Assembly: GCA_003945285.1 (NCBI GenBank) | Contig: AP019005.1 | Location: 1,688,001-1,752,000 of the forward strand | Direction of reading: 5' to 3' | Length of the DNA stretch: 64,000 nt | DNA from: Hydrogenimonas sp. | Lineage (GTDB): Bacteria > Campylobacterota > Campylobacteria > Campylobacterales > Hydrogenimonadaceae | Part shown: positions 3,053 through 54,324 of the stretch, piece by piece | How the letters are laid out: each line of letters starts with the position of its first letter | Numbering within the stretch: position 1 is the stretch's first letter | Made by a program: the position numbers and the translations under genes | Notes under the pieces: model-generated | What the model saw: only the letters and a program-made list of their open reading frames with translations | Databases searched by the model: none | Told to the model about the DNA's origin: nothing

Positions 3053-4081
3053 ATGCGCAAATACAATGTTGCCGTAGTAGGCGCCACCGGGGCAGTGGGT
3101 GAAGAGATGCTCCGTGTGATGGAAGAGGTCGACTTTCCGGTTGCCAAACTGGTTCCGCTCGCCAGCGCAAGGAGTGCCGGCGGAACGGTCGGCTACAAAG
3201 ATGAAGATGTCAAAGTCAAGGAGCTTACGGAAACCGTATTCGAAGAGGAGGAGATAGATATCGCCCTCTTCAGCGCGGGCGGGTCAGTATCTGCCAAGTT
3301 CGCTCCTTTCGCCGTCGAAGCGGGTGCGGTCGTCATAGACAATACGAGTCACTTCAGGATGGACCCGGCGGTTCCGCTGGTCGTACCCGAAGTGAACCCG
3401 GAAGATATTGCCGGATGGCGCGAGAAAGGGATCATAGCCAACCCCAACTGCTCCACCATCCAGATGGTGCAGGCCCTCAAGCCGCTCCATGATGCCTACG
3501 GAATAGAGAGAATCGACGTCAGCACCTATCAGGCGACTTCAGGTGCCGGCAAGAGCGCGATGGATGAGTTGGTGCGCCAGATGCAGGAGTTTTTCGCGTT
3601 CAAACTCGACGAGAGTGAACACAGGAAGTTCCCGCACCAGATAGCGCTTAATGTGATTCCGCAGATAGACGTGTTTTTGGACAACGGGTTCACCAAGGAA
3701 GAGATGAAAATGGTCAACGAGACCAACAAGATAATGCACGACTCCATCGAGGTGGCCGCCACATGCGTAAGGGTTCCCACACTCCGCGGACACGCCGAAA
3801 GCATCACGGTGACCTGCAAAAAAGAGCTGGATGCCGACAGCGCACGAGAGACGATAGCGAAGGGTGAAAACATCGTCATTCTCGACGACCCGGCCAACAG
3901 CGTCTACCCCATGCCGACACTCTGTGTAGAGAAGAACGAGACATTCGTCGGCAGAATAAGAGGAGACATCTACCGCCCGAACGTCATACACATGTTCGTA
4001 GTAGCCGACAACCTCAGGGTAGGAGCGGCCACGAACGCCGTACGGATAGCCCAAAAATGGATAGAGATGGAGACAATATGA
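3053..4081 (+). CDS. asd: aspartate-semialdehyde dehydrogenase
   Basis: This enzyme reduces aspartyl-4-phosphate to aspartate 4-semialdehyde with NADPH, the branch point to lysine/diaminopimelate, threonine and methionine. The 342-residue length is normal. The N-terminal NADP-binding loop reads GATGAVGEEM (10-19), and the catalytic cysteine is C133 in NPNCSTIQ. The active-site RGHAES element is also present. A ribosome site (AAGG) precedes the ATG. The stop codon overlaps the start of the next gene in an ATGA, beginning a tightly packed run through hemE to a radical SAM gene. Position directly after flgR matches C. jejuni. Confidence 0.96.
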   Translation: MRKYNVAVVGATGAVGEEMLRVMEEVDFPVAKLVPLASARSAGGTVGYKDEDVKVKELTETVFEEEEIDIALFSAGGSVSAKFAPFAVEAGAVVIDNTSHFRMDPAVPLVVPEVNPEDIAGWREKGIIANPNCSTIQMVQALKPLHDAYGIERIDVSTYQATSGAGKSAMDELVRQMQEFFAFKLDESEHRKFPHQIALNVIPQIDVFLDNGFTKEEMKMVNETNKIMHDSIEVAATCVRVPTLRGHAESITVTCKKELDADSARETIAKGENIVILDDPANSVYPMPTLCVEKNETFVGRIRGDIYRPNVIHMFVVADNLRVGAATNAVRIAQKWIEMETI

Positions 4082-4593
4082 AACTTCTGGAAAAGTTGTT
4101 CGAACATACCCTCTGGAACGGACGCCTCTTTGTCCTCCTGGCTGTAGTATTCAGCCTTATCGCTTCGATAATTCTCTTTATAGTCGCGAGTGTGGATATA
4201 TGGGGCATAACCGTCGAAACCATAAAGATGTACATAGCCCACGAACACCCGCCGCACTTCCATGAAAAACTGGTAGGTGTCATAATCGGTGCCGTAGACC
4301 TCTACCTTATCGCGATAGTGATGCTTATTTTCAGCTTCGGTGTATACGAGCTCTTCATCTCCCAGATAGACCCGGCAAAAGAGTCCGGGGCCTCGAAAAT
4401 CCTGGAGATCCACTCTCTAGACCAGCTCAAGGACAAACTCGCTAAAGTTATCGTCATGGTGCTGGTGGTCACCTTCTTCAAGAAGGCGATGTACACACCG
4501 TACGATTCACCTCTGGATATGCTCTATTTCGCCATCGCGATTCTAGCACTCGGAGGAGCACTATATTTCCTAAGTAAAGGCACAAAAAAATGA
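4078..4593 (+). CDS. UPF0114 (YqhA family) membrane protein
   Basis: The 171-residue integral membrane protein resembles the YqhA/UPF0114 family, whose function is unknown. Hydrophobic segments are visible at about 15-38 ([20 protein letters not shown]), 68-88, 120-135 and 143-162. The start at 4078 forms an ATGA overlap with the asd stop; the longer in-frame start at 4057 would lie inside asd and has no ribosome site. It also overlaps hemE by ATGA at its end, so it is translationally coupled on both sides. There is no evidence that it acts in amino acid or haem synthesis; the coupling may only reflect genome compaction. Confidence 0.85.
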
Positions 4594-5612
4594 TATTCGT
4601 AGATGCATGTTTCAACAAACCTACCCCATACACACCGGTATGGATGATGCGCCAGGCAGGCAGATACCTTCCCGAATATATGGCTGTACGTGAAGAGGCG
4701 GGAGATTTCCTGAACCTCTGCAAAGATCCCGAAAAAGCGGCGGAAGTGACTCTTCAGCCGGTAGATATAGTAGGCGTAGACGCAGCGATTCTCTTCAGCG
4801 ACATCCTGGTGATCCCTCTTGAGATGGGAATGGATCTGAAATTCGAAAAGGGAGAGGGGCCGGTATTTTCCGATCCGATCAGGACAAAAGAGGATCTGAA
4901 GCGGCTTCAGCCCAATGCTCACGAGCGTCTTACATACGTCTACGACGCCATCAGGATCATCCGCGAAAGACTCGCCGACGATAAAGCCCTCATAGGCTTC
5001 ACAGGCGCGCCATGGACGCTGATAACCTACATGATCGAAGGGCGCGGCACAAAGACCTACAACATAGTCAAAAAGCTCATCTACACGGAGCCCGAGCTCG
5101 TCCATGCTCTCCTTCGCGAAGTTACCGAAGTGGTCAAACTCTATCTCGAAAAGCAGATCGAAGCGGGAGTTAATGTCGTTCAGATATTCGACAGCTGGGC
5201 CGCGGCACTCGAGAAGAGCAAATATTTCGAATTCAGCTGGAACTATATGAAAGAGGTGGCAAGCTACATCAAAGGCAAATACCCCCACATCCCGATCATC
5301 ATGTTCCCCAAAGGCATAGGTGCATACCTGGACGACATAGACGGAGAGTTCGACGTATTCGGTGTAGACTGGGGAACGCCTATGGCCCTAGCAAAAGAGA
5401 AGCTCGGCGACCGCTACGTTCTGCAGGGCAACATGGAGCCGTGCCGCCTCTACTCCAAAGAGGCTACGAAAGAGTGTGTGGAGTCTATCTATAAACTTAT
5501 GCAAAACAGGGGCCACATATTCAACCTCGGCCACGGAATACTCCCCGACGTTCCAGTCGAAAACGCAAAATATTTCGTAGACCTGGTACACGAGATAACG
5601 AAAGAGAAGTGA
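4590..5612 (+). CDS. hemE: uroporphyrinogen decarboxylase
   Basis: HemE removes the four acetate carboxyl groups of uroporphyrinogen III to give coproporphyrinogen III in haem synthesis. The 340-residue protein starts [20 protein letters not shown], with the family signature [15 protein letters not shown]. The second signature [16 protein letters not shown] and the active-site region QIFDSWA are intact. Start and stop both overlap neighbours (ATGA with the upstream gene, GTGA with the downstream one). Haem is needed here for, among others, the cytochrome b of the hydrogenase encoded later in the window. Confidence 0.97.
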
Positions 5613-6562
5613 CACCCTCCAGATACAGGACCATCTTCGGTCCTATCCCCTCCAGACGTTTCGGCATCTCCCTTGGCATAGACCTAAGCCCGGGGGAGAA
5701 GCAGTGTAACTACGACTGCCTCTACTGCGAACTCGCCGCATCGAAACCGGTAGAGATCATAAAGAACCCGCCGAGCGTGGACGAGGTGATAAACGAGCTG
5801 AAGCAGGCCCTCGAAGAGCACCCCGATATAGACGTCATAACGATAACGGCAAACGGAGAACCGACCCTCTACCCGTATCTCAACGAGCTCATAGAGCGCA
5901 TAAACGAGATAAAAAACGGCTACAAAACCCTCATACTGACAAATGCATCGACAATAGACGACCCCAAGATACAAAAAGCCCTCTCGAAGCTCGATATAGT
6001 AAAGCTCTCACTCGACTGCGCCACCGCGGAGTGCTTCAGAAAACTGGACAGACCCATATCCAGTGTCGATCTGAAGAGAGTTATCGAAGGGATAAGGAGC
6101 TTCAGAGAGAGGTTCAAAGGAAGTATGGTCATAGAGATCCTGATGGTACCAAAAATAAACACTACGGAGGTCGAGATAGAGGCACTCAACAAAACCCTGC
6201 TTTCGCTCAAACCGGACCGTATAGACCTCGGTACGGTAGACAGACCGCCCGCATATCCCATAGAACCTCTCGGCTTCAAAGAGCTTCATGAAATAGCAGA
6301 GAAGTTCGACCCGAAACTCCCCGTACACATAGCGAGCCGCCATAAAACGAAAGAGGCCAAAAGCGCCTTCAGCGACGAAGAGATACTCGAGACCCTGCAG
6401 AAACGCCCCCTGACGATGGACGATATAGAGGCACTGATGGACGAAGAGAGCCTCAAGCGCTTCAAACGCCTGCTCGAGAGCGGAAAAATAGAGACCCGAA
6501 AGCTCGGCGGCCTCCTCTTCTACGGCACCGGATTTTCAAAACAGAAACAAAAAACCTCTTGA
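5609..6562 (+). CDS. radical SAM protein (COG0731-like)
   Basis: The 317-residue protein carries the radical SAM iron-sulphur motif CNYDCLYC (C33, C37, C40), binding a [4Fe-4S] cluster and S-adenosylmethionine. The start region [19 protein letters not shown] is typical of the COG0731 group of stand-alone radical SAM proteins, related to but distinct from tRNA wybutosine enzyme TYW1. The glycine-rich SAM loop appears as [11 protein letters not shown]. The C-terminal part (about 240-317) looks like a winged-helix unit. The GTG start overlaps the hemE stop. Substrate is unknown; close Campylobacterota homologues are generally annotated only as radical SAM proteins. Confidence 0.88.
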
Positions 6563-6587
6563 CAAAGAGCCGCTTTTAGACTATAAT
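6559..6587 (+). promoter_or_regulatory. sigma-70 promoter for tRNA-Asn
   Basis: A consensus -35 TTGACA (6559-6564) and -10 TATAAT (6582-6587) are separated by exactly 17 bases. The -35 overlaps the stop region of the radical SAM gene, and the tRNA begins 37 bases beyond the -10. This is the clearest sigma-70 promoter in the window. Confidence 0.8.
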
Positions 6588-6624
6588 TTCCGCCGTGATT
6601 GACCCAATCGCAACCCTCTAATGT

Positions 6625-6699
6625 TCCGGATTAGCTCAGCGGTAGAGTAGGTGGCTGTTAACCACTTGGTCGCTGGTTCGAATCCAGCATCCGGAGCCA
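6625..6699 (+). tRNA. tRNA-Asn (GTT), CCA encoded
   Basis: The 75-base sequence folds as a complete tRNA. Acceptor strands TCCGGAT and ATCCGGA pair over seven bases, the D-loop reads AGCTCAGCGGTAGAG, and the anticodon loop CTGTTAA gives anticodon GTT. The T-arm GCTGGTTCGAATCCAGC is canonical, the discriminator is G and CCA is encoded. A run of seven T bases follows at once and could contribute to termination. The region downstream is accessory in character, consistent with tRNA genes being common integration points, although no integrase is present. Confidence 0.97.
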
Positions 6700-7262
6700 T
6701 TTTTTTCAATCTCTATTATTCAACTTCACACTCATAGATAGCAAAACTGCCTACCTTATAATCTACCATAAATAGCGGAAATCCTCAATTTTGTCGGTTG
6801 CAAATGGAATATAGCACGGTAATTCAAAACTCAAGAGATAAAGAGACGGGTCGGTGAAATCTGCTAGCATTGCGATTTGAGCGGCAGCGGGGCGTTAAGA
6901 AAACCGCTCCTGCCCGAAGGGTTCCGTAGGAATTTGCGGTTTTCAGCCCCGCTGCCGCGCCCCGAAGGGCAAATCGCACCTGCGTACAGGTTTTGCCGAC
7001 CCGTCTCGGTTTTTTCTTAATGCCCGGCTTTGAATTACCCTGGGAATATCGTAGAATCATCGATTTATGCCGTTTTTTAAAGTTATTCGACAGATACATC
7101 CCTGTCTTTCACGCTCCCGCAAATATTTTCAAATCGGCAAACACCCCGAATTTCACCTCCTTTACTAGCCCAAACAATACTTCTATTATTCAAAGTTTTT
7201 AAAGAGTAATTTAATCAACAAAATATTAAAATATTGTTGTTTAGAGTATACAAAGGTTTAGA
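6700..7262. other. 563-base non-coding region holding a palindromic repeat
   Basis: No convincing gene is seen between tRNA-Asn and the AAA ATPase gene. Most of the space is one long inverted-repeat element (6815-7041, listed separately). A 12-base direct repeat TCTATTATTCAA occurs at 6712-6723 and 7182-7193. Just before the ATPase gene there is a small AT-rich hairpin (around 7218-7241) and AT-rich leader sequence. One 91-codon frame on the minus strand lies wholly inside the palindrome and looks spurious. Confidence 0.7.
6815..7041. repeat. long imperfect palindromic element (type B, copy 1)
   Basis: The element is bounded by the inverted ends GGTAATTCAAA (6819-6829) and TTTGAATTACC (7029-7039). 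Inside, GAGACGGGTCGG (from 6841) is mirrored by CCGACCCGTCTC near 7000, and GCGGCAGCGGGGC by GCCCCGCTGCCGC, so most of the 227 bases could fold into one large stem. The first 18 bases are identical to those at 35324, and the left half resembles 54386-54450. It carries no gene; it looks like a non-autonomous mobile or structural repeat. Confidence 0.75.
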
Positions 7263-45560: not shown

Positions 45561-47096
45561 ATGAGAAATATGCTGTTAGGCAGTGCCGTATTGGCTTCGT
45601 TACTCTATTTTACCGGATGCGGTAGCGTAGATAATAACACATCCACCATAGGTGCCGCCAGCACCGGAGTTTTGGTAGATGCACCGGTTGCCGGAGTAGA
45701 TTACGAGTGCTCCGGCGGTAAAAACGGGGTTACAGGAACAAACGGTGAGTTCCAGTTCAACGAAGGAGATACCTGTAAGTTCAGCATAGGCTCCCTGCCG
45801 CTGGGAGATGTTCTTGCAAAAACCATCGTTACGCCCAAGGATCTGCTTGGAACCCAGGACTTCAACGATACGAAAGTGCTGAACCTTGCAAAACTGCTAT
45901 GGGCTCTTGATTCAGACGGTAACGTAACCAACGGTATACAGATAGACAGCAATATAACCGAAAGTCTCTCCGCGTTGAGCCTTGCGACGGATGATCCCGA
46001 TGATATCTTCGACGCCTTCGAAGACTATATCGAAGATATCGCGGAGGCTTTAGGGAATGACATCGATGCCGAAATCTCCATGTACAACGACGATGACATA
46101 CTGAAGCACCTGGAGAAGAGCGAAATGGAGGCCGAGTACGCCTACACCGATCTCCCTCTCGTAGCACTGAGCAGAGACCACTTCACCGGCAAAACGTTCT
46201 ACATGGATGACGATATAACTCTTACGTTCAATTCGAATGGATCCTTCACGGAAGTCTATACCGACGATGGGGTAACGACTACCTTCACCGGGGGCTGGAC
46301 CATAGCCGGAGACAGACTTGTACTGATAAAAAACAGCGGCAGCGGTATATCTTCTGAGTTCATCGTATTTACAGAAATAACCGATACATATGCCAGATTC
46401 ATAGCTTTCCTGAGTGACGACGTAGAGGGCGGTACGGCAATGATTGTTTCAAGCGCAACCGCAACAGACGGCACCGCTTTCAACCTGAAGTCAGATATCA
46501 AGTTTTCCGACTTTGCAAATAAACAGTTCACAACCGCCGATGGAGTAGTAAGTCTCTATCCGGACGGAAGCTATACCGATATAGGCAGTGAATGGTCTAT
46601 AGCAGGTTCCTGGACAATTGTAGACAACTACCTGGTGCTAAACGGAAAAGATACCACATTCAACTCCATAAGCTTTGCCGGGGTGGATGCGAACAACACC
46701 TCCAAAGTCTATATTTTCAGTGAAAACGGAGCGAGTGAAAAGAACGTAACTATATCCGATCTGAACTCCACCCTGCCTGAGCGCGATGTCACAAACAGAG
46801 TCGCGTTAAGCAAGGATCTGTTCAGCGATAAAAAAATAGTTATAAACGACACCATACTGGAGTTGGAAGCGGATGGAGAGTATAAAGAGAAGGGGTCAAA
46901 CTATGAAGCCGAAGGCTCATGGACCATTCTGGACAACTATCTTGTATTGACCGGTCGCGAAAATTACGGAAGCCCGATTTTCGCCATTATCGCATTCTCC
47001 GACATAAACGCCGCCTCTGCGACCTTTACGATATACTCTGCAGACGGGGTTGAAAGCATCACCTCCGCCCCGGTTTCAGTTCTGGAAGATGACTGA
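45561..47096 (+). CDS. surface or periplasmic lipoprotein with three internal repeats
   Basis: A 511-residue lipoprotein if started at 45561 after an AAGGAG ribosome site; lipobox YFTGC puts the lipidated cysteine at residue 20. A first domain (ASTGVLVDAPVAGVDYECSG...FSIGSLPLGDVLAKT) resembles N-terminal modules of other epsilonproteobacterial surface lipoproteins. Three similar beta-rich units follow, at about 46153-46440, 46495-46760 and 46797-47070. Each has the pattern of a charged start (ALSRDHF/KFSDFA/ALSKDLF), then G-W-T-I and YLVL-G. The units look like small beta-barrel or lipocalin-like folds, but I recognise no family. Function unknown. Confidence 0.75.
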   Translation: MRNMLLGSAVLASLLYFTGCGSVDNNTSTIGAASTGVLVDAPVAGVDYECSGGKNGVTGTNGEFQFNEGDTCKFSIGSLPLGDVLAKTIVTPKDLLGTQDFNDTKVLNLAKLLWALDSDGNVTNGIQIDSNITESLSALSLATDDPDDIFDAFEDYIEDIAEALGNDIDAEISMYNDDDILKHLEKSEMEAEYAYTDLPLVALSRDHFTGKTFYMDDDITLTFNSNGSFTEVYTDDGVTTTFTGGWTIAGDRLVLIKNSGSGISSEFIVFTEITDTYARFIAFLSDDVEGGTAMIVSSATATDGTAFNLKSDIKFSDFANKQFTTADGVVSLYPDGSYTDIGSEWSIAGSWTIVDNYLVLNGKDTTFNSISFAGVDANNTSKVYIFSENGASEKNVTISDLNSTLPERDVTNRVALSKDLFSDKKIVINDTILELEADGEYKEKGSNYEAEGSWTILDNYLVLTGRENYGSPIFAIIAFSDINAASATFTIYSADGVESITSAPVSVLEDD

Positions 47097-47467
47097 CGGC
47101 AGGTAAAGGGCACCACTCTTCACGGTAGCCGATAACGGCCCGCTTTCCAAAAACGGAAAGGCGGGTCGGCCTAAAGGCCGCTCTTACCACACTCCCGGCT
47201 CATGTCGAAACCGATGACAGAATCGGCATAAAGCGTGGGGGATCTTTATTGCACCTTGCTCTTTCTAAAGAAACCACATATAATCTGTATACCAATTCTG
47301 TAATAATCCGGCATAAACACTGTTTCCTATTGTCAAGTCTTATATTTCATTAAGAAACATAAGACTAAAATTTCGCCGATATTACTATATAGAGCGGTTG
47401 TTTTAAAACCGGGTATAGTGTATTTTTCTCTCACTTAACGAGATAAACATAATTTCGGATCATAATG
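47097..47467. other. 371-base region between lipoprotein and R-M genes
   Basis: The gap starts with a GC-rich stretch holding two hairpins (CCCGCTTTCC...GGAAAGGCGGG at about 47139-47166 and GGCCTAAAGGCC), plausible terminators for the lipoprotein gene, and then becomes AT-rich towards the restriction-modification island. No gene is seen. Confidence 0.55.
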
Positions 47468-47893
47468 TTATTTACTATTTCTCAAATCTGCAATAGTTTC
47501 TTTTATTTTATTAGCTATGCTCGATGCATCTTGATAAATGTCTTTTTCCCAAAAACGCAAAACTGTCCATCCATCCTTCCTCAGCTTTTCATTTACATCT
47601 TTATCTCTTTTGATATTGCGTTCCAGCTTCGCATTCCAATACTCTTGATTGCTTTTTGGAATGGCTTTTCCCTTTTTATACAATCTTCCATGCCAAAAAT
47701 CGCTATCAACAAATATTGCAAGCTTATATTTTTTTATATAAATGTCAGGCTTTCCAAATATGTTTTTTGCATGAATTCTATATCGAACACCCAGCTTGAA
47801 CAGGGCTTTTCTCAGCACAACTTCAGGCTTTGTATTTTTAGAACGAATGCGTTGCATATTTTTTTTTCGTTGCTGAGGAGTCAAGTTGTCCAT
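47468..47893 (-). CDS. vsr: very short patch repair (Vsr) endonuclease
   Basis: Vsr nicks DNA next to T:G mismatches that arise when 5-methylcytosine deaminates, protecting sites of a C5 methyltransferase. The 141-residue protein has the family pattern MQRIRSKNTKPEVVLRKAL, GKPDIYIKKYKLAIFVDSDFWHG and TVLRFWEKDI. The usual GCFWH stretch reads SDFWHG here. It is the last gene of the methyltransferase-nuclease-Vsr set, 9 bases after the nuclease gene. AT-rich, as its neighbours. Confidence 0.92.
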   Translation of the reverse strand: MDNLTPQQRKKNMQRIRSKNTKPEVVLRKALFKLGVRYRIHAKNIFGKPDIYIKKYKLAIFVDSDFWHGRLYKKGKAIPKSNQEYWNAKLERNIKRDKDVNEKLRKDGWTVLRFWEKDIYQDASSIANKIKETIADLRNSK

Positions 47894-47902
47894 GCTTTAT
47901 TT

Positions 47903-48859
47903 CTAAACTGAAAAATCCAAAAAATAATTTTCATCGTCTATTTTACAAACCCTAACATCTCTACGACCATATTCATCCAGATTGTTCAATGTGACCATTT
48001 CACCTTCTGGAACTCCTAACCTTCTTCTAAAATATAAGCCTAAAGTACTATTGTTCATATATGTATGAAGTGCTTTGCCATTATCTTGTGCGCGCACACA
48101 ATCAAGAATATAACCATCATCTGTATAAACTATAAAAGGAATTCCCCTTTCAGGGAAAAAATTTGATCTTTGAACATCAGCAGGAATTGGGATGTATGCT
48201 TGATTGGGTTCTCTTCCTGCTTCGGGCCTTTGTCCCCAGTTTAGTCCAGAACGTTCCGGGACCCGTAGCGGACCTTTTCTATCAGTTACAAGAGAAAGGG
48301 TGATACAGTCATTAAAATTATGATCAATATTACCAATGCCGGCAGAATCGTTTCTAATGCACTGTAACGTGGTTACATTTTGCAATGGAAAAATATCAGT
48401 TACTTCTGGGTCCCGGCAACTGATTGCTGATTCTAAAATTTCGTTGTAGTAATTATATGCGTTTATCGGATCTGTTTCTTCAAGCGCTTCATTCTGCCTC
48501 CATGAAAATGCTTTGAGACTGTAATTCGCAGAACCAATGAACCCAATTATTCCCCTGTTTTCATCATTCATCCAAACATATGTTTTTGAATGGACAGGAA
48601 AATCCATATTGACATATCCACAAAAAAATCTGTCGGGATATTCTTCCACAATTTGCTTGAATGCATTATGCATTTGAAGACTCAATCCACCACTTTTCAC
48701 CATTCCAATCAAAAGATGTATAGTGATGTCTGGATACTCATATAGTTGTCGAAGTGCCATTGATGGTGAAGCATAACCTGAAACAACGTATAAATGTTTT
48801 GCCCCATTCTCAATATGAGGTCTTATTAAAACCTCTTCATATAAATTTTCAGTAAGCAC
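47903..48859 (-). CDS. PLD-family restriction endonuclease (NgoFVII-like)
   Basis: The 318-residue protein carries one phospholipase D-type HKD motif: H90-x-K92 in VHSKTYVWMND, followed by GFIGSANYS (GSxN at 109-112). This is the layout of NgoFVII/BfiI-like restriction enzymes, which act as dimers and need no metal ion. The C-terminal part, with SLVTDRKGPLRVPERSGLNWGQR, probably recognises DNA. It lies between the C5 methyltransferase and Vsr genes and so forms a type II system with them. The target sequence cannot be read from the protein; NgoFVII itself recognises GCSGC. Confidence 0.85.
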   Translation of the reverse strand: MLTENLYEEVLIRPHIENGAKHLYVVSGYASPSMALRQLYEYPDITIHLLIGMVKSGGLSLQMHNAFKQIVEEYPDRFFCGYVNMDFPVHSKTYVWMNDENRGIIGFIGSANYSLKAFSWRQNEALEETDPINAYNYYNEILESAISCRDPEVTDIFPLQNVTTLQCIRNDSAGIGNIDHNFNDCITLSLVTDRKGPLRVPERSGLNWGQRPEAGREPNQAYIPIPADVQRSNFFPERGIPFIVYTDDGYILDCVRAQDNGKALHTYMNNSTLGLYFRRRLGVPEGEMVTLNNLDEYGRRDVRVCKIDDENYFLDFSV

Positions 48860-48907
48860 AATATTCCTTTCAAAACAAGGTATTGTGCAAATATATAATA
48901 TACTGTA

Positions 48908-50005
48908 TTAAATTTTATTAAATTGCAAATTTGGTTCAACACTTTCGTAATCTATACAGGCAAACGTCTTTAAAATAGATTCAAACAAAATTTGCGCCAT
49001 GAGCGGCGAAACCGCCATCCCAATTTGTCTTCTCACGCTTTCTTTTTTCCCAACAAATACAAAATCATCAGGAAACGTTTGAATTCTGGCCCGCTCGCGA
49101 TTCGTAAGTGCTCTGAGTTCTTTATAATGATACCCATGGGTGCCGCCGCCCCCGCTTCCTGTAATTGTGTAAGAAGGCTGATTTGGATGAAGTCTTCTGT
49201 ATATCTGACTCATTTTTGCACCTTTTACGTTGAGCTGAAGGTGTTCTGGGAGCTCGGTCTGCCAAATATTTTCTCCAGGTTTTATATATTTCAAACGTTC
49301 AACAACAATTGCTGATTGTTTAGTTATCTCATGATTTGGAGCATCAGATGGAATGGGATTGTCTTCCAAAACCTCCTTAACTGAAATATGCTTATTTTTG
49401 GTAGTAGGTGCAGGAACTTTAAATTTAAGGCCAATTTTCTTGTCAATCCCTACAATTATTATTCTATGTCTTTTTTGCGGGACTCCGTATTCTTCAAAAC
49501 GATATTTATGTACTGTAAGTTCATACCCATTGCCTGCATTTTTTAGGTCATTCAATATTTGATGAAAAGCCTTACCCTCATTTGCACTTGTAAGTCCGCC
49601 CACATTTTCTGCCAAAAAAAATTTGGGCTTGAACGTACTTAAAATTTTTACTCCATACTTATACAAGCCTCCAAATTCTCCACCCATTCCTTTGGATTCA
49701 CCCACTATGCTAAAATCATTGCATGGAAAACCGTAAGCAAAAGCATCTATTTCATCCAAGACTGATATAAACTTTTCATCTTTCATCAAGTTTCTTACAT
49801 CAGAACAGATTATTTTTGCACCTTTGATGTTTTGCGCATATGTCTGGCAACTTTCCTGATGATAATCAGTCGCCCACACATGCTTAATTCTATATGTAGT
49901 TTTGTTTTCTAAACTACGGACAATTGCTTTTTTTGCTCCCAAAGCCAAACCACCGGGACCACAAAACAGTTCACCCAATTTAAAAACAACTTCTTTTTCG
50001 TGCAT
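48908..50005 (-). CDS. DNA (cytosine-5) methyltransferase
   Basis: A C5-cytosine methyltransferase of 365 residues. Motif I is LFCGPGGLALGAKKA (13-27), the catalytic cysteine is C95 in GFPCNDFS (motif IV), ENVGG is motif VI, and motifs IX-X (YRRLHPNQPSYTITGSGGG and NRERARIQTFPDDFVF...QIGMAVSP) are present. It protects the host from the PLD-type nuclease encoded next. The gene is markedly AT-rich against the rest of the window, indicating horizontal gain of the whole island. A DCM-like orphan role is unlikely given the nuclease partner. Confidence 0.95.
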   Translation of the reverse strand: MHEKEVVFKLGELFCGPGGLALGAKKAIVRSLENKTTYRIKHVWATDYHQESCQTYAQNIKGAKIICSDVRNLMKDEKFISVLDEIDAFAYGFPCNDFSIVGESKGMGGEFGGLYKYGVKILSTFKPKFFLAENVGGLTSANEGKAFHQILNDLKNAGNGYELTVHKYRFEEYGVPQKRHRIIIVGIDKKIGLKFKVPAPTTKNKHISVKEVLEDNPIPSDAPNHEITKQSAIVVERLKYIKPGENIWQTELPEHLQLNVKGAKMSQIYRRLHPNQPSYTITGSGGGGTHGYHYKELRALTNRERARIQTFPDDFVFVGKKESVRRQIGMAVSPLMAQILFESILKTFACIDYESVEPNLQFNKI

Positions 50006-50683
50006 TTAACTCTCCAACTATAGTATTTTCAATCAGCAATATTGCAGCATATATTTTTTGATTATAACATATTTGCAGCTTAATTTCAACAAAAACGATT
50101 TTGGCATAACGAAAAGATGAACATATTTTACTTCCGAACATAAATGACTCTATACAAATGTTTGCAATAAAAATATCAAGACTGATTTGCAAAGGAAGCC
50201 ATTTTGGACTTTCAAGACAAACAGCTCAAAACCTTTATCGGAATAAATTTCTGTTCGCTATAGCCGTATTTATACCATACCTCAATTAGATCTGTTAGAG
50301 ATAAGTGATAAGCGAAAAAGTGAATCCTATTCGCAATTCCTGATTCCAAAAAATCGCATCCTCATACATATTTCGCAATGCCCATGTTTTGTTGGGGTTT
50401 TTTGGGGAAAAATATTGGTATTAAAGTGATGAGTTCAATTTTGAAGTTTTTACATAGTCTGTTTTCACAATTTTTTTCTGACTCTCACAAAAAACTAGAC
50501 AGTAATACAAGCTGTCTTACTAGATATACTTTTACATGACATGTATAAGTTGACTTTGGAATTGTCTTTTTCAAGGAAACTACTTAAAAGCAAAGAAGAG
50601 TGTATTAAAACATTTAATGATGCTTGTGTTATAATAAAATGTATGTATAATATTTTTGTTATATAAATGCATTTGGATTGCGT
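50006..50683. other. 678-base AT-rich region without a supported gene
   Basis: This gap lies upstream of the restriction-modification genes. Short frames here have no ribosome site or family resemblance. It holds small inverted repeats (GACAGTAATACAAGCTGTC at about 50499-50517, ACATGACATGT at 50533-50543) and a TTATAATAAAATG promoter-like box before the DUF6471 gene. It may be decayed island DNA. Confidence 0.5.
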
Positions 50684-50908
50684 ATGGATAAAAAAGAACT
50701 CTCAATACAAGCAAAAAAACTGATCAAGAAATTGATGATAGAAGAAGATATTTCTTATGTCGAATTACAAAAAAAACTCGAAGAAAAAGGTTATATCTAT
50801 TCTGTAGAAGCACTACGGAGCAAAGTTTCTCGCGGTAGGTATGATATTAGATTTTTGCTCGAAATAGCAGAAGCCTTGAAGAAAAAAGTCGAAATTTCCA
50901 GTAATTAA
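50684..50908 (+). CDS. small DUF6471-like helix-turn-helix protein
   Basis: The 74-residue protein (MDKKELSIQAKKLIKKLMIE...) resembles the DUF6471 family: a helical unit in which DISYVELQKKLEEKGYIYSVEALRSKVSRGRYDIRFLLEIAEAL reads like a small XRE-type DNA-binding domain. The ATG at 50684 is preferred over a TTG two codons upstream. It is AT-rich and sits at the edge of the R-M island, divergent from the methyltransferase gene, where a controller protein would be expected. Control of the R-M genes is a possibility only. Confidence 0.65.
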   Translation: MDKKELSIQAKKLIKKLMIEEDISYVELQKKLEEKGYIYSVEALRSKVSRGRYDIRFLLEIAEALKKKVEISSN

Positions 50909-50962
50909 CTGAGCTGACGTAAAATTTGTCAGCCTCTAGATTTGGGCCTTCAGGGCCTGGTG
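50907..50962. repeat. type D repeat end (copy 2)
   Basis: AACTGAGCTGACGTAAAATTTGTCAGCC resembles, on the same strand, the reverse complement of the right end of 20990-21160 (AACTGACATTACGCTAAATTTGTCAGCC). The following GATTTGGGCC...GGCCTGGTGATAA links it to the repeats near 8487 and 9574. The stop codon of the DUF6471-like gene lies in the repeat end. Confidence 0.6.
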
Positions 50963-51123
50963 ATAAGAAAAATTTCCCATATAGATCCCGGTTTTAAATC
51001 TAAAGTGCAATTTCACCTCTGAAAACTCTATTCAAAATTGCCTAAGAACTCTCATTTTTCATGAAAGAGATAAAGTTCATGGGCAGTTTCGCAGTTAAAA
51101 ACCGCCCCTATCGCATATACCGA

Positions 51124-51870
51124 TCAAGCAGATTCGGTATTGCTCAAAACGAGAATCAGCGAGCCGGTCACGACAGTGGCGATGATGGTGTATCCGGTCG
51201 GGAGGTCGAAGCGGTATGAGAGAAAGAGTGCCAGGGTGACAGAGAGGCCTCCGAAGAGCCATGCAAACGGTAAAGAGGGCCACCTCTTCTGTATCAGGGC
51301 GGCGTAGGCCGGTGCTATGAGCAGTGCGAAGACCACGAGCACTCCGGCGATCTGTACAGAAGAGGTAACCGTTATGGCCAATGCGGTGAAGAATATGATC
51401 TCTTTCAACATTCCCGATGTTCGGGGGTAGATCAGGAACATGACCGCGGCAACGGCCCCATAGAGCAGAAAAGCCTTCAGAACATCGGCCGGTGCGGCAA
51501 AAAGGATATCCGCCGCGCTCAGCTTGTTAAAGAGCTCCATTCCCTGACCGCTCTGGGCCAGTATCAGCATGATGGAGGAGATACCGAGTGCGTAAAGAAG
51601 CCCTATGAACGCTTCGACATGCCGTAAACGCCGGCTTGCATATGCTATCACCAGGGCCGCCGTGAAGGCGAAAAAGAGTGTCAGCGGCGTCTGGTATCTC
51701 CCCTCCAGAAAAGCGCTGCTGACAGCAACGCCTATTGCGGCGACCTGCCCGATTGCCAGGTCGGTGAAGATGACGCCGCGTTTTATAATCTCCAGCCCGA
51801 AGACGGCATGTATAAAAACGAGCAAAAGGCCCAGCACAAAAGCGGGCCACAGAATCTCCACTATCGGCAT
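51124..51870 (-). CDS. znuB: metal ABC transporter permease (ZnuB-like)
   Basis: A 248-residue inner-membrane permease of the ABC-3 family that imports zinc or manganese. About eight hydrophobic helices are visible, and the family's DLAIGQVAAIGVA, VSSAFL and ALLIAPAYAALI segments are present. It overlaps the substrate-binding gene by ten bases and is last in the operon. No ATPase (ZnuC) gene lies in the operon or anywhere in this window. Zinc is favoured over manganese from the binding protein and the His-rich small protein upstream. Confidence 0.85.
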   Translation of the reverse strand: MPIVEILWPAFVLGLLLVFIHAVFGLEIIKRGVIFTDLAIGQVAAIGVAVSSAFLEGRYQTPLTLFFAFTAALVIAYASRRLRHVEAFIGLLYALGISSIMLILAQSGQGMELFNKLSAADILFAAPADVLKAFLLYGAVAAVMFLIYPRTSGMLKEIIFFTALAITVTSSVQIAGVLVVFALLIAPAYAALIQKRWPSLPFAWLFGGLSVTLALFLSYRFDLPTGYTIIATVVTGSLILVLSNTESA

Positions 51871-52742
51871 AGGCGCTCGGCATAGGTCTCATAGAACGAC
51901 TCTAGCGTCCCTGAACCCTCTACGGCTCCAAGATCATGAGGCAGCACCACGACCCGCGCACCAGTTTTTGCCGCTATGAACCTTGCCGTCCTCTTTTCAT
52001 GGTAGGGGTCTTGCAAAATCGTTTTGACACCCTTCTCTTTCATCGAGGCGATCAGCTCCAGTGTATGTTTCGAGCCGGGGGCGATGCCGGGCAGCGGTTC
52101 TATAGTGCCGACAGAAACTATGCCGTAGCGTTTGAGAAAGTAGTTGTAGAGCTCATGGTACTGAACCACTTTCATGCCCCGGCACTTCTCCATCCGGGCG
52201 TCGAATCTTTTCAAAAACTTCTGCCAGCGGTCCAGAAATCTTTTCAGGTTGGCCGCATAGTCGTTTTTATGGAGCGGGTCTACGATTTCGAGTTTATGCT
52301 CTATCAGCGTCGCAATCGGGACAATATTGTGCGGATCGATGTAGAAGTGGGGGTTGCCCTCGGGGTGAACATCCCCGTATGCGCGTGAAACGGCTTCTGA
52401 TTTCTCTATCGTATCTACCACCCTGCTCACATCTACAAACCCGGCTCTTCCCGGGTTGATCTTCGGGTTGTTGGCACGCTCGAGCAGCGGAGGGAGCCAG
52501 CCTATCTCCAGTCCGCCGCCGTTGATGACCAGCATATCGGCACGGCTCAAACGGCTTATCAGTGACGGTTTGGGGACGACGAAATGTGGGTCTTGCTTCG
52601 GACTGCTCAGCACCGTGACTTTTACATGTTCTCCGCCGATACTCTCGGTTACGGCTGCAAGATAGCTGTATGTGACAGCCACATCGACACGTGCCAGCAG
52701 TGCAGAAAATGTCAAAACCAGCACTATAAACACTTTTTTCAT
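51861..52742 (-). CDS. znuA: metal ABC transporter substrate-binding protein (ZnuA-like)
   Basis: The 293-residue periplasmic protein captures the metal for the ABC permease. A signal peptide (MKKVFIVLVLTFSALLA) leads a cluster A-I fold. Likely metal ligands are H52 (SPKQDPHFVVPKPS), H133 region (NPHFYIDPHN), H200 region (QYHELYNYF) and a final Asp/Glu (QDPYHEK). Unlike many ZnuA proteins it lacks a long histidine-rich loop, so iron or manganese cannot be ruled out. It starts 21 bases after the porin-like gene. Confidence 0.87.
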   Translation of the reverse strand: MKKVFIVLVLTFSALLARVDVAVTYSYLAAVTESIGGEHVKVTVLSSPKQDPHFVVPKPSLISRLSRADMLVINGGGLEIGWLPPLLERANNPKINPGRAGFVDVSRVVDTIEKSEAVSRAYGDVHPEGNPHFYIDPHNIVPIATLIEHKLEIVDPLHKNDYAANLKRFLDRWQKFLKRFDARMEKCRGMKVVQYHELYNYFLKRYGIVSVGTIEPLPGIAPGSKHTLELIASMKEKGVKTILQDPYHEKRTARFIAAKTGARVVVLPHDLGAVEGSGTLESFYETYAERLCR

Positions 52743-52763
52743 TGTTGATTCTCCCTGAAACTT

Positions 52764-53999
52764 TTAAAAGGCATGGGCGCCGTGGGCGCCGATCGCGACG
52801 TTGAGACTGAAAATGATCTCGTCGATATCTCTTCTCTCACCGTCGATCACTTTCGACCTATCACGGTTGTACTGCAGCCTCAGGCGCGACATCGGGAAGG
52901 GTTTGTACTCCGCCATAACACTGTATCGGTCAAGGTCGTCGGGGAGGGAACCGCTGTTTTTGAAGAGTATTCCGTACCGAAAGCCGCAACTGTAGTTTTT
53001 GTCGATCTGGTAGATCAGTTCACTGTAAAGCCCCGCCTGATCCTCAGTAGCTGTGCCGTTGTCGTAGGTGCGGTAGAGCAGCTCGCTCTGCCATGTCAAA
53101 GCGCTGTAGGCATTCAGGTAGGTTCGTGTAGTGAAATCTGCTCCGTAGAGATCGGTTTCATTGCCTGTCGTGTTTTTCCCGTGGGCGATACTGACACCTC
53201 CGAGCAGCGTCGTATCCCCGACATCCGTACTTGATTTAAGATATCCGACATAGAGATTATTCTTTTCGATATCACCGAAACTACGGATATTACTCCCCTG
53301 GAGCGCTTCTATACCTGCCATGATGTAGGTATCGGTCGGTGCTACCCACTGCAGTTGGATACCAGGGTCGCTGATGCCGTCCGGGCCCAGCATAGCCTTA
53401 TAGACAAGCGGCTGTGTATCGAAATGCCAGCTGTGGTGATGCTTGGCATTGATACGCCCGAAATCGCTTTTGAATTTTCCGGCTTTTATACGAAGGCTGT
53501 AAGGCAGGCTTCTCGTTGTCACATAGGCCTCTCCTATCTCGAACTCGTTCGGGCGAAGATGAAAATAGGCGGACGCATCGAAATAGGGGTCGACGGCCGA
53601 ACGGAGAGAGAGCTCCGCATAATTGAGGTTGAAACCTCTGTTCTTGTTGAAAGGCAGATCCCCGTCGCCTGCCGGGATAAACCCGGGAATGGCGAAATTT
53701 TCGTATGAACTATTGTCGACATTGCGGCTTACGGCCGAACTGTTTAGAACAAGGGCGATATCTGGCAGAAAAGCGCCCTGGTTGAATGATGCCGAGTAGG
53801 TATCGGCCCGGGCCATTTTGGCTTTCAGTTCGTTTGACTGCCTCTTCTTATCCCGGTTTTCAAGCTCTTCAACACGCTGTTTCAGCGCTTCGATTAGCTG
53901 CAGCTGATTTTTCATCTGCAGCTTCAACTGCTCCATGTCACTGCCGCCGGCATAGAGTGCAGCGGCGGCAATCATGGAGATGATAAATGTTTTTTTCAT
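52764..53999 (-). CDS. outer-membrane porin-like protein with coiled-coil N-terminus
   Basis: A 411-residue outer-membrane protein: signal peptide (MKKTFIISMIAAAALYAGG), a coiled-coil (QLKLQMKNQLQLIEALKQRVEELENRDKKR, about 24-53), then a beta-barrel with alternating strands ending AIGAHGAHAF. A histidine cluster AKHHHSWHF may bind metal. It heads the znuA-znuB genes, so I infer that it helps zinc cross the outer membrane; similar barrel proteins accompany zinc ABC genes in other bacteria. It shows some likeness to phosphate-selective (OprO/P) porins in its general pattern only. Confidence 0.78.
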   Translation of the reverse strand: MKKTFIISMIAAAALYAGGSDMEQLKLQMKNQLQLIEALKQRVEELENRDKKRQSNELKAKMARADTYSASFNQGAFLPDIALVLNSSAVSRNVDNSSYENFAIPGFIPAGDGDLPFNKNRGFNLNYAELSLRSAVDPYFDASAYFHLRPNEFEIGEAYVTTRSLPYSLRIKAGKFKSDFGRINAKHHHSWHFDTQPLVYKAMLGPDGISDPGIQLQWVAPTDTYIMAGIEALQGSNIRSFGDIEKNNLYVGYLKSSTDVGDTTLLGGVSIAHGKNTTGNETDLYGADFTTRTYLNAYSALTWQSELLYRTYDNGTATEDQAGLYSELIYQIDKNYSCGFRYGILFKNSGSLPDDLDRYSVMAEYKPFPMSRLRLQYNRDRSKVIDGERRDIDEIIFSLNVAIGAHGAHAF

Positions 54000-54051
54000 A
54001 GATTGCTCCTGATTTTCTCATGTTATGGTCGGTTGTGATTGTCGGAAAAAA

Positions 54052-54324
54052 TCAGGAGAGAGGAGGAGCGCGTGCGAAAACACTTTCGGGCCTTGAAGAG
54101 AGCCTCAATGTGACAAAGCGGGTTACGACCGGATCGGAGTGCGCATCGATCTCCTGCAGAGACAGGGTGGCGGGGGTATCAGCCACTGAGAGGTTCGACT
54201 GTAAAACGCAGACAGGGCAGTCGTTATGGGTTTTGAGGTCATTGTGGTGGTGCAGCGCGGAAAACAGCGTCACCGCCAGCAGCACTGTACTGAGAAGTTT
54301 TCTGAAAAGCCCGCTATCTATCAT
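54052..54324 (-). CDS. small secreted His/Cys protein at head of zinc operon
   Basis: A 90-residue protein starting with a hydrophobic signal (FRKLLSTVLLAVTLFSAL). A short metal-binding-looking cluster follows at once: HHHNDLKTHNDCPVCVLQ, with histidines and a CxxC pair. The rest is low complexity. The layout is that of small DUF2946-type periplasmic proteins found beside metal genes. It precedes the porin-like gene by 52 bases on the same strand and is likely the first gene of the zinc operon. Confidence 0.65.
   Translation of the reverse strand: MIDSGLFRKLLSTVLLAVTLFSALHHHNDLKTHNDCPVCVLQSNLSVADTPATLSLQEIDAHSDPVVTRFVTLRLSSRPESVFARAPPLS

What the first reader, a model, noticed from the sequence alone, without database searches (positions are those of the whole stretch)
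51124..54324. Zinc uptake operon with dedicated outer-membrane porin and His/Cys protein but no ATPase gene
The unit holds a small His/CxxC secreted protein, a coiled-coil porin with AKHHHSWHF, ZnuA-like and ZnuB-like proteins. No znuC is present where one is expected. Either the ATPase is encoded elsewhere and shared, or was lost from the end where the AT-rich island and a repeat (50907) now sit.
Basis: partly seen in the sequence, partly recalled or inferred. Interest (0 to 1): 0.55.

Follow-up and report, generated by a model that had tools for sequence, protein, structure and literature searches.

The report
Zinc import unit without an ATPase
A conserved bacterial zinc-import unit has an outer-membrane channel, a zinc-catching protein and a membrane pump part that has lost the piece where the usual ATP-burning engine docks, so it may bring zinc in without ATP.

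Summary
In detail: small His/CxxC protein, porin, ZnuA-like (A2) and ZnuB-like (B2) genes form one tight unit (54324-51124, minus strand) with no ATPase gene. A B2 relative is in 50 of 397 genomes of the phylum; porin-A2-B2 stand together in 47 of these 50 loci, and no ABC ATPase hit lies within 1.1 kb of B2 in the 49 relatives (one is cut just downstream). All 50 genomes have a ZnuC-ZnuB pair elsewhere, with ZnuA beside it in 48. AlphaFold (pLDDT 91) shows a PsaC/BtuC-type fold with a two-residue turn there. A V. campbellii relative, of the published zinc-starvation omr-znuAII-znuBII type, also lacks helix and ATPase. B2 is under purifying selection (median dN/dS 0.063). Best reading: a porin- and binding-protein-fed zinc importer descended from an ABC transporter that no longer uses an ABC ATPase; the driving force is inferred. 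Sharing ZnuC, or pairing with ZnuB1, is not excluded.

The parts
54052..54324 (-). small His/CxxC protein (DUF2946-like; HHH.D...H..C..C...APP), first gene of the unit
   Evidence: upstream of the porin in 43 of 47 loci (40 by C-terminal pattern; L039, L040, L053 by BLAST)
52764..53999 (-). outer-membrane porin: N-terminal helix (coiled coil) and 16-strand barrel, ends GAHGAHAF
   Evidence: (pLDDT 81.8)
53421..53450 (-). NAKHHHSWHF motif of the porin
   Evidence: N184, H187, H189, F193 invariant in 30 of 30
51861..52742 (-). ZnuA-like periplasmic binding protein (A2); H53, H132, H196 expected zinc ligands
   Evidence: PF01297 165.9 bits; the three His in 47 of 47
51124..51870 (-). ZnuB-like permease (B2)
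   Evidence: PF00950 42.8 bits; PsaC/BtuC-type fold
51397..51429 (-). TM6-TM7 turn of B2 (YPRTSGMLKEI): place of the missing coupling helix
   Evidence: 11 residues in 50 of 50 B2, 23 in 57 of 57 canonical ZnuB; helices 127-150 and 153-175 joined by a two-residue turn

Best explanation
A dedicated zinc-scavenging unit. The porin admits zinc through the outer membrane, with His residues as likely waypoints; the small His/CxxC protein is an accessory of unknown step; the ZnuA-like protein captures zinc in the periplasm and hands it to the ZnuB-like permease. That permease descends from an ABC permease but has lost the ATPase-docking helix and has no ATPase gene of its own, so it most likely works without an ABC ATPase, as a binding-protein-fed zinc carrier or uniporter driven by the inside-negative membrane potential or by ion coupling. 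Shown by computation: gene order, homology, predicted fold, ligand conservation, missing helix, missing ATPase gene, purifying selection. Inferred: zinc as substrate here (by homology with Vibrio), direction of transport, ATP independence, driving force.
For: Coupling-helix segment 11 aa in 50 of 50 B2 and 23 aa in 57 of 57 canonical ZnuBs; 81 of 81 further loci (80 plus one plasmid, overlapping in species) align there without insertion to the window B2. The AlphaFold model has no helix between TM6 and TM7, while the fold matches PsaC over 244 residues, Z 23.8, rmsd 3.8. The B2 profile aligned to solved ZnuB (9oko) and PsaC (7kyo) leaves insertions in them at that place. In 49 relatives the nearest ABC ATPase hits are at 1.1 kb or more; 7 of 49 have one within about 6 kb, and the 5 typed match MlaF-, tungstate/molybdate- or LolD-type profiles best. 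The canonical His of TM2 (57 of 57) is Gln in 48 of 48 B2 longer than 215 aa, and H21 (47 of 48), D37, E112, E157 and a TM7 T/S cluster are newly conserved. V. campbellii porin-ZnuA-ZnuB (L223) shows the same lack of helix and of an adjoining ATPase gene. B2 median dN/dS 0.063, 99 pairs with finite dS of 153. Zinc: V. parahaemolyticus ZnuAII (vpa1307) is induced by zinc starvation and supports growth with TPEN (PMC3794297, passages); omr, znuAII and znuBII rise about 1030-, 540- and 280-fold under zinc limitation in a table headed Zur regulon (PMC9817125, passages).
Against: No transport data for B2 of any kind. All 50 genomes also have a ZnuC that could in principle be used. An 11-residue cytoplasmic turn with invariant E157 remains and could dock something. 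No zinc-responsive promoter motif was found in the Campylobacterota loci. In the Vibrio passages read, the binding protein was tested by deletion; nothing was seen on the permease's energy source.
Confidence: 0.55

Rival explanations
1. B2 borrows the ZnuC ATPase of the canonical znu operon, as some sugar permeases share one ATPase (recalled).
For: A ZnuC gene beside a canonical ZnuB is in all 50 genomes with the unit.
Against: The docking helix is missing in 50 of 50 B2; ZnuA-family proteins are in 363 of 394 genomes anyway, so co-occurrence is expected.
Confidence: 0.2
2. B2 forms a mixed permease pair with canonical ZnuB1, so that one coupling helix serves a ZnuC-driven hybrid fed by A2.
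For: ABC importers have two permease subunits (recalled); both ZnuBs are present in all 50 genomes.
Against: B2 and B1 form separate, distant clades (with long-branch warnings); the dimer surface was not tested.
Confidence: 0.12
3. B2 is not a transporter but a membrane partner of A2 (sensor or zinc reservoir).
For: Loss of ATPase docking; invariant TM2 His replaced by Gln.
Against: Full permease fold, purifying selection, conserved pairing with a binding protein and a porin, growth role of the Vibrio binding protein.
Confidence: 0.08
4. znuC was lost from this locus when the AT-rich island arrived.
For: AT-rich stretch directly downstream.
Against: The ATPase gene is missing from the unit in the relatives too.
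Confidence: 0.01

Closest known systems
ZnuABC / ABC-3 (cluster A-I) zinc and manganese importers, e.g. E. coli ZnuABC, PsaBCA
   Same: ZnuA-family binding protein with three ligand His; permease with PsaC/ZnuB fold
   Different: no ATPase gene in the unit; permease lacks the coupling helix; a porin and a small His/CxxC protein are added
Vibrio omr-znuAII-znuBII (V. parahaemolyticus VP_RS21430-21420; znuAII = vpa1307)
   Same: porin ending GAHGAHAF, ZnuA, ZnuB without coupling helix and without adjoining ATPase gene, checked in V. campbellii L223
   Different: no small CxxC ORF of 40 aa or more found in about 1.1 kb upstream of the L223 porin; about 26-30% identity for porin and ZnuA; the passages read do not discuss a missing ATPase
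AztABCD zinc importer
   Same: AztB and AztC are the best NCBIfam profiles for B2 and A2
   Different: scores far below the curated cut-offs (38 of 280 and 109 of 350 bits); no AztA-like ATPase next to the unit
TRAP/TTT binding-protein-dependent secondary transporters (recalled, not tested)
   Same: would share the principle: binding protein plus an ion- or potential-driven carrier
   Different: unrelated permease folds (recalled)

Membership tests
ABC importer of the ZnuABC / ABC-3 type | ZnuA-family substrate-binding protein | tested here: met
   165.9 bits against cut-off 29; three ligand His in 47 of 47
ABC importer of the ZnuABC / ABC-3 type | permease with ABC-3 (type II) fold | tested here: met
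   over cut-off; PsaC Z 23.8, rmsd 3.8, 244 aligned
ABC importer of the ZnuABC / ABC-3 type | coupling helix between TM6 and TM7 that docks the ATPase | tested here: not met
ABC importer of the ZnuABC / ABC-3 type | cognate ATPase gene in the operon | tested here: not met
ABC importer of the ZnuABC / ABC-3 type | transport driven by ATP hydrolysis | not testable with these tools
   needs uptake assays
omr-znuAII-znuBII type zinc unit (Vibrio) | homologous porin, binding protein and coupling-helix-less permease in one unit without ATPase | tested here: met
   on V. campbellii; the V. parahaemolyticus sequences themselves were not fetched
omr-znuAII-znuBII type zinc unit (Vibrio) | Zur / zinc regulation | tested here: inconclusive
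   two Fur-family genes in the genome; no motif found in the Campylobacterota loci
TonB-dependent receptor (label of the Vibrio omr) | 22-strand barrel with plug (recalled) | tested here: not met
   16 strands and an N-terminal helix in the window porin (pLDDT 81.8); porin matches; the Vibrio protein was not modelled
DUF2946 | score over the Pfam cut-off | tested here: met
   26.4 against 23.7; but only 6 of 21 aligned members match at E 0.01

The most novel reading that the evidence does not exclude
An ABC permease that has shed its ATPase and its docking helix and become a binding-protein-fed secondary zinc transporter or uniporter: a further design of binding-protein-dependent uptake beside ABC and TRAP/TTT, partnered with its own zinc porin, in Campylobacterota and Vibrio.
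Probability: 0.5. Interest if true: 0.82.

Novelty: new variant of a known kind. Interest (0 to 1): 0.62.

Why it matters
If right, some genes now named 'metal ABC transporter permease' (as in the Sulfurovum plasmid record) belong to an ATP-free branch, and the question of how an ABC permease can work without its engine becomes testable in a small, self-contained system. It would also bear on the zinc-starvation operon of Vibrio, whose energy source is not discussed in the passages read. Counts made here: 50 of 397 genomes of the phylum and 232 matching stretches in one scan.

Tried and rejected
Loss of znuC at the island edge: rejected. A hidden ATPase near the unit: seven of 49 relatives have an ABC ATPase hit within about 6 kb, 1.1 to 4.3 kb from B2; 5 of the 7 were typed, all below the curated cut-offs, so their names are best matches. 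Co-occurrence of ZnuC as support for sharing: set aside, because the ZnuA-family baseline is 363 of 394. A complete canonical operon in all 50: not borne out, since no ZnuA was found in the stretches of G392 and G364 (L092, L111), though both genomes have two ZnuA-family matches. Pseudogene: rejected, but G203/L064 (one stop inside, no porin or A2 near) and G388/L084 (two stops, contig edge) look decayed or cut. Upstream zinc box in Campylobacterota: none found; the signals were not accepted as a promoter motif, one of them being the coding end (RAPP) of the small gene, which led. In V. campbellii two TGTTAT..ATAACA-like palindromes precede the porin, read by eye against a recalled Zur consensus. 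Distribution outside the phylum could not be measured: the one genome-contig scan kept its best 80 of 232 loci, all titled as Campylobacterota taxa except one 'bacterium' (L173). Tblastn of B2 in plasmids found one record and of the Vibrio ZnuB only itself. Literature: no listing or passage seen describes a znuB without znuC or without the coupling helix; only open-licence full texts are searched. Papers: passages of PMC9817125, PMC3794297, PMC2770081, PMC6103462, PMC7731109 (and its abstract), PMC11466899 and PMC8248653; the others only as search listings. One search used a wrongly guessed family accession and says nothing here. The tree joining the Vibrio ZnuB to B2 has 100/100 support, but the tool warns of long branches and odd composition. 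The role of the coupling helix in type II importers is recalled, not taken from a call.

Full report
What is there. The window lies in a one-contig genome of 2,193,435 bases. On the minus strand four genes follow closely: a 90-aa protein with HHH and CxxC motifs, a 411-aa porin, a 293-aa ZnuA-like binding protein (A2) and a 248-aa ZnuB-like permease (B2). No ATPase gene is beside them. The nearest named relatives of B2 include Hydrogenimonas MAGs at 71-77% identity (L142, L143, L197), so the host is probably near Hydrogenimonas; this is inference.

A second, ordinary zinc transporter exists. The same genome has znuA-znuC-znuB at about 13.8-16.2 kb. In the phylum sample 50 of 397 genomes have a B2 relative. 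All 50 also have a strong ABC-3 permease elsewhere with a ZnuC gene directly beside it; a ZnuA relative was found in the same stretch in 48 of 50, not in L092 (G392) and L111 (G364). ZnuA-family proteins occur in 363 of 394 genomes, so this co-occurrence is expected and proves no sharing.

The unit is conserved without an ATPase. Porin, A2 and B2 lie together in 47 of 50 loci, the window included; of the other three, L082 and L084 sit at contig ends and L064 is decayed. The small gene is upstream of the porin in 43 of 47: 40 by its APP ending, and L039, L040 and L053 by BLAST. A ZnuC query finds ABC ATPases within about 6 kb of B2 in 7 of 49 relatives, the nearest at 1,134 bases; 48 of the 49 have at least 1 kb downstream held and L067 is cut 15 bases after B2; five relatives have less than 4.5 kb upstream held. 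Five of the seven ATPases were typed and match MlaF-type (three), tungstate/molybdate-type or LolD-type profiles best. In 81 further loci (80 named plus a plasmid, overlapping in species) 75 hold at least 1 kb downstream and none of the 75 has a ZnuC-like hit there; A2 is seen in 80 and the porin in 72 of 81, many of these loci being cut short by contig ends.

The permease lost its docking helix. In an alignment of 50 B2 with 57 canonical ZnuBs (54 from the genomes with the unit, four of them extra copies, and three from same-genus genomes without it), the segment between TM6 and TM7 has 11 residues in every B2 and 23 in every canonical protein. The canonical stretch, such as YDEEVAKTSG, is the coupling helix of type II importers (recalled). 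AlphaFold gives B2 pLDDT 91.2 and joins helix 127-150 to helix 153-175 by a two-residue turn. The model matches PsaC (7kyp, Z 23.8, rmsd 3.8, 244 aligned) and then BtuC-type permeases. The profile search against solved structures finds ZnuB 9oko (E 1.7e-6) and PsaC, with insertions in them at this place. No control model of a canonical ZnuB was made; the control is the sequence alignment.

B2 is functional but altered. Nei-Gojobori dN/dS has a median of 0.063 and a maximum of 0.258 over 99 pairs with finite dS among 153 pairs over 75% identity; dS is large in many pairs, so the value is rough. 43 columns are invariant in 47 sequences. The canonical invariant His of TM2 (57 of 57) is Gln in 48 of 48 B2 longer than 215 aa, the invariant Asp is Glu, and H21 (47 of 48), D37, E112, D121, E157 and D222 (48 of 48 each) are conserved in B2 but not in the canonical set. 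These are candidates for a changed pathway; no role is shown.

Partners. A2 has the three zinc-ligand His of ZnuA (H53, H132, H196) in 47 of 47, and H126 besides. The porin model has a long N-terminal helix and 16 strands (pLDDT 81.8) and matches chitoporin, MOMP, OmpT, OprP/OprO and DcaP, not TonB-type barrels among the 50 rows shown. H187, H189 and the terminal H406 and H409 are invariant in 30 of 30; 13 of 30 carry a further His-rich stretch by a simple pattern. The small protein passes the DUF2946 cut-off narrowly; 6 of 21 aligned members match that model.

The Vibrio link. Tblastn of A2 and of the porin in plasmid records finds V. campbellii NZ_CP050465 (E 1e-38 and 4e-22). There a porin ending GAHGAHAF, a ZnuA and a ZnuB follow each other; the ZnuB also lacks the coupling helix and no ATPase gene adjoins. 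In V. parahaemolyticus the corresponding genes are omr-znuAII-znuBII: the binding protein vpa1307 is induced by zinc starvation and supports growth with TPEN (PMC3794297, passages), and the three genes rise about 1030-, 540- and 280-fold under zinc limitation in the Zur-regulon table (PMC9817125, passages). A primer printed in PMC3794297 that covers the end of the upstream gene reads GAHAF-stop by my own translation, so omr is probably the same porin family and its 'TonB-dependent' label is doubtful; the V. parahaemolyticus sequences were not fetched. The word 'permease' has no occurrence in the main text of PMC3794297.

How it most likely works. The porin brings zinc into the periplasm, A2 binds it and hands it to B2, and B2 lets it in without an ABC ATPase. 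Thermodynamics allow this: a divalent ion at about -150 mV inside is drawn in some 10^5-fold, and free cytoplasmic zinc is kept very low (own knowledge). The binding protein would supply affinity and direction. ATP independence, driving force and oligomeric state are inferences. Sharing ZnuC with a poor docking surface, or a B1/B2 mixed pair, remain possible.

Verdict. It works like an ABC-type zinc importer up to the membrane, but it fails two tested defining features of an ABC transporter (docking helix, cognate ATPase gene), so I do not file it as one.

Noticed in passing
window 47000-51000: AT-rich island (GC 0.31-0.38) with a C5-cytosine DNA methyltransferase (48908-50005) and a neighbouring 318-aa ORF (47903-48859, not typed), possibly a restriction-modification insertion beside the zinc unit.
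   Followed up: partly
   Followed up: no
L222 (Sulfurovum mangrovi plasmid NZ_CP087125.1, 395 kb) 3842-7148: The unit lies on a plasmid, right behind a gene annotated as site-specific recombinase, so it may move.
   Followed up: no
same-genus genomes G074, G125, G198; loci L142, L143, L197: Patchy near the host: no B2 match in the 3 other same-genus genomes sampled, present in three MAGs named Hydrogenimonas.
   Followed up: no
L052 10732-10964 (turned so that B2 is on +): Fragments of a second, apparently broken B2 copy about 3 kb downstream of the intact one.
   Followed up: no
L223 about 7140-7190: Two TGTTAT..ATAACA-like palindromes before the Vibrio porin gene, like a Zur box (consensus recalled).
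   Followed up: partly
V. parahaemolyticus VP_RS21430 (omr), PMC9817125 Table 1: Named a TonB-dependent receptor, but its family looks like a 16-strand porin, probably a misannotation.
   Followed up: partly
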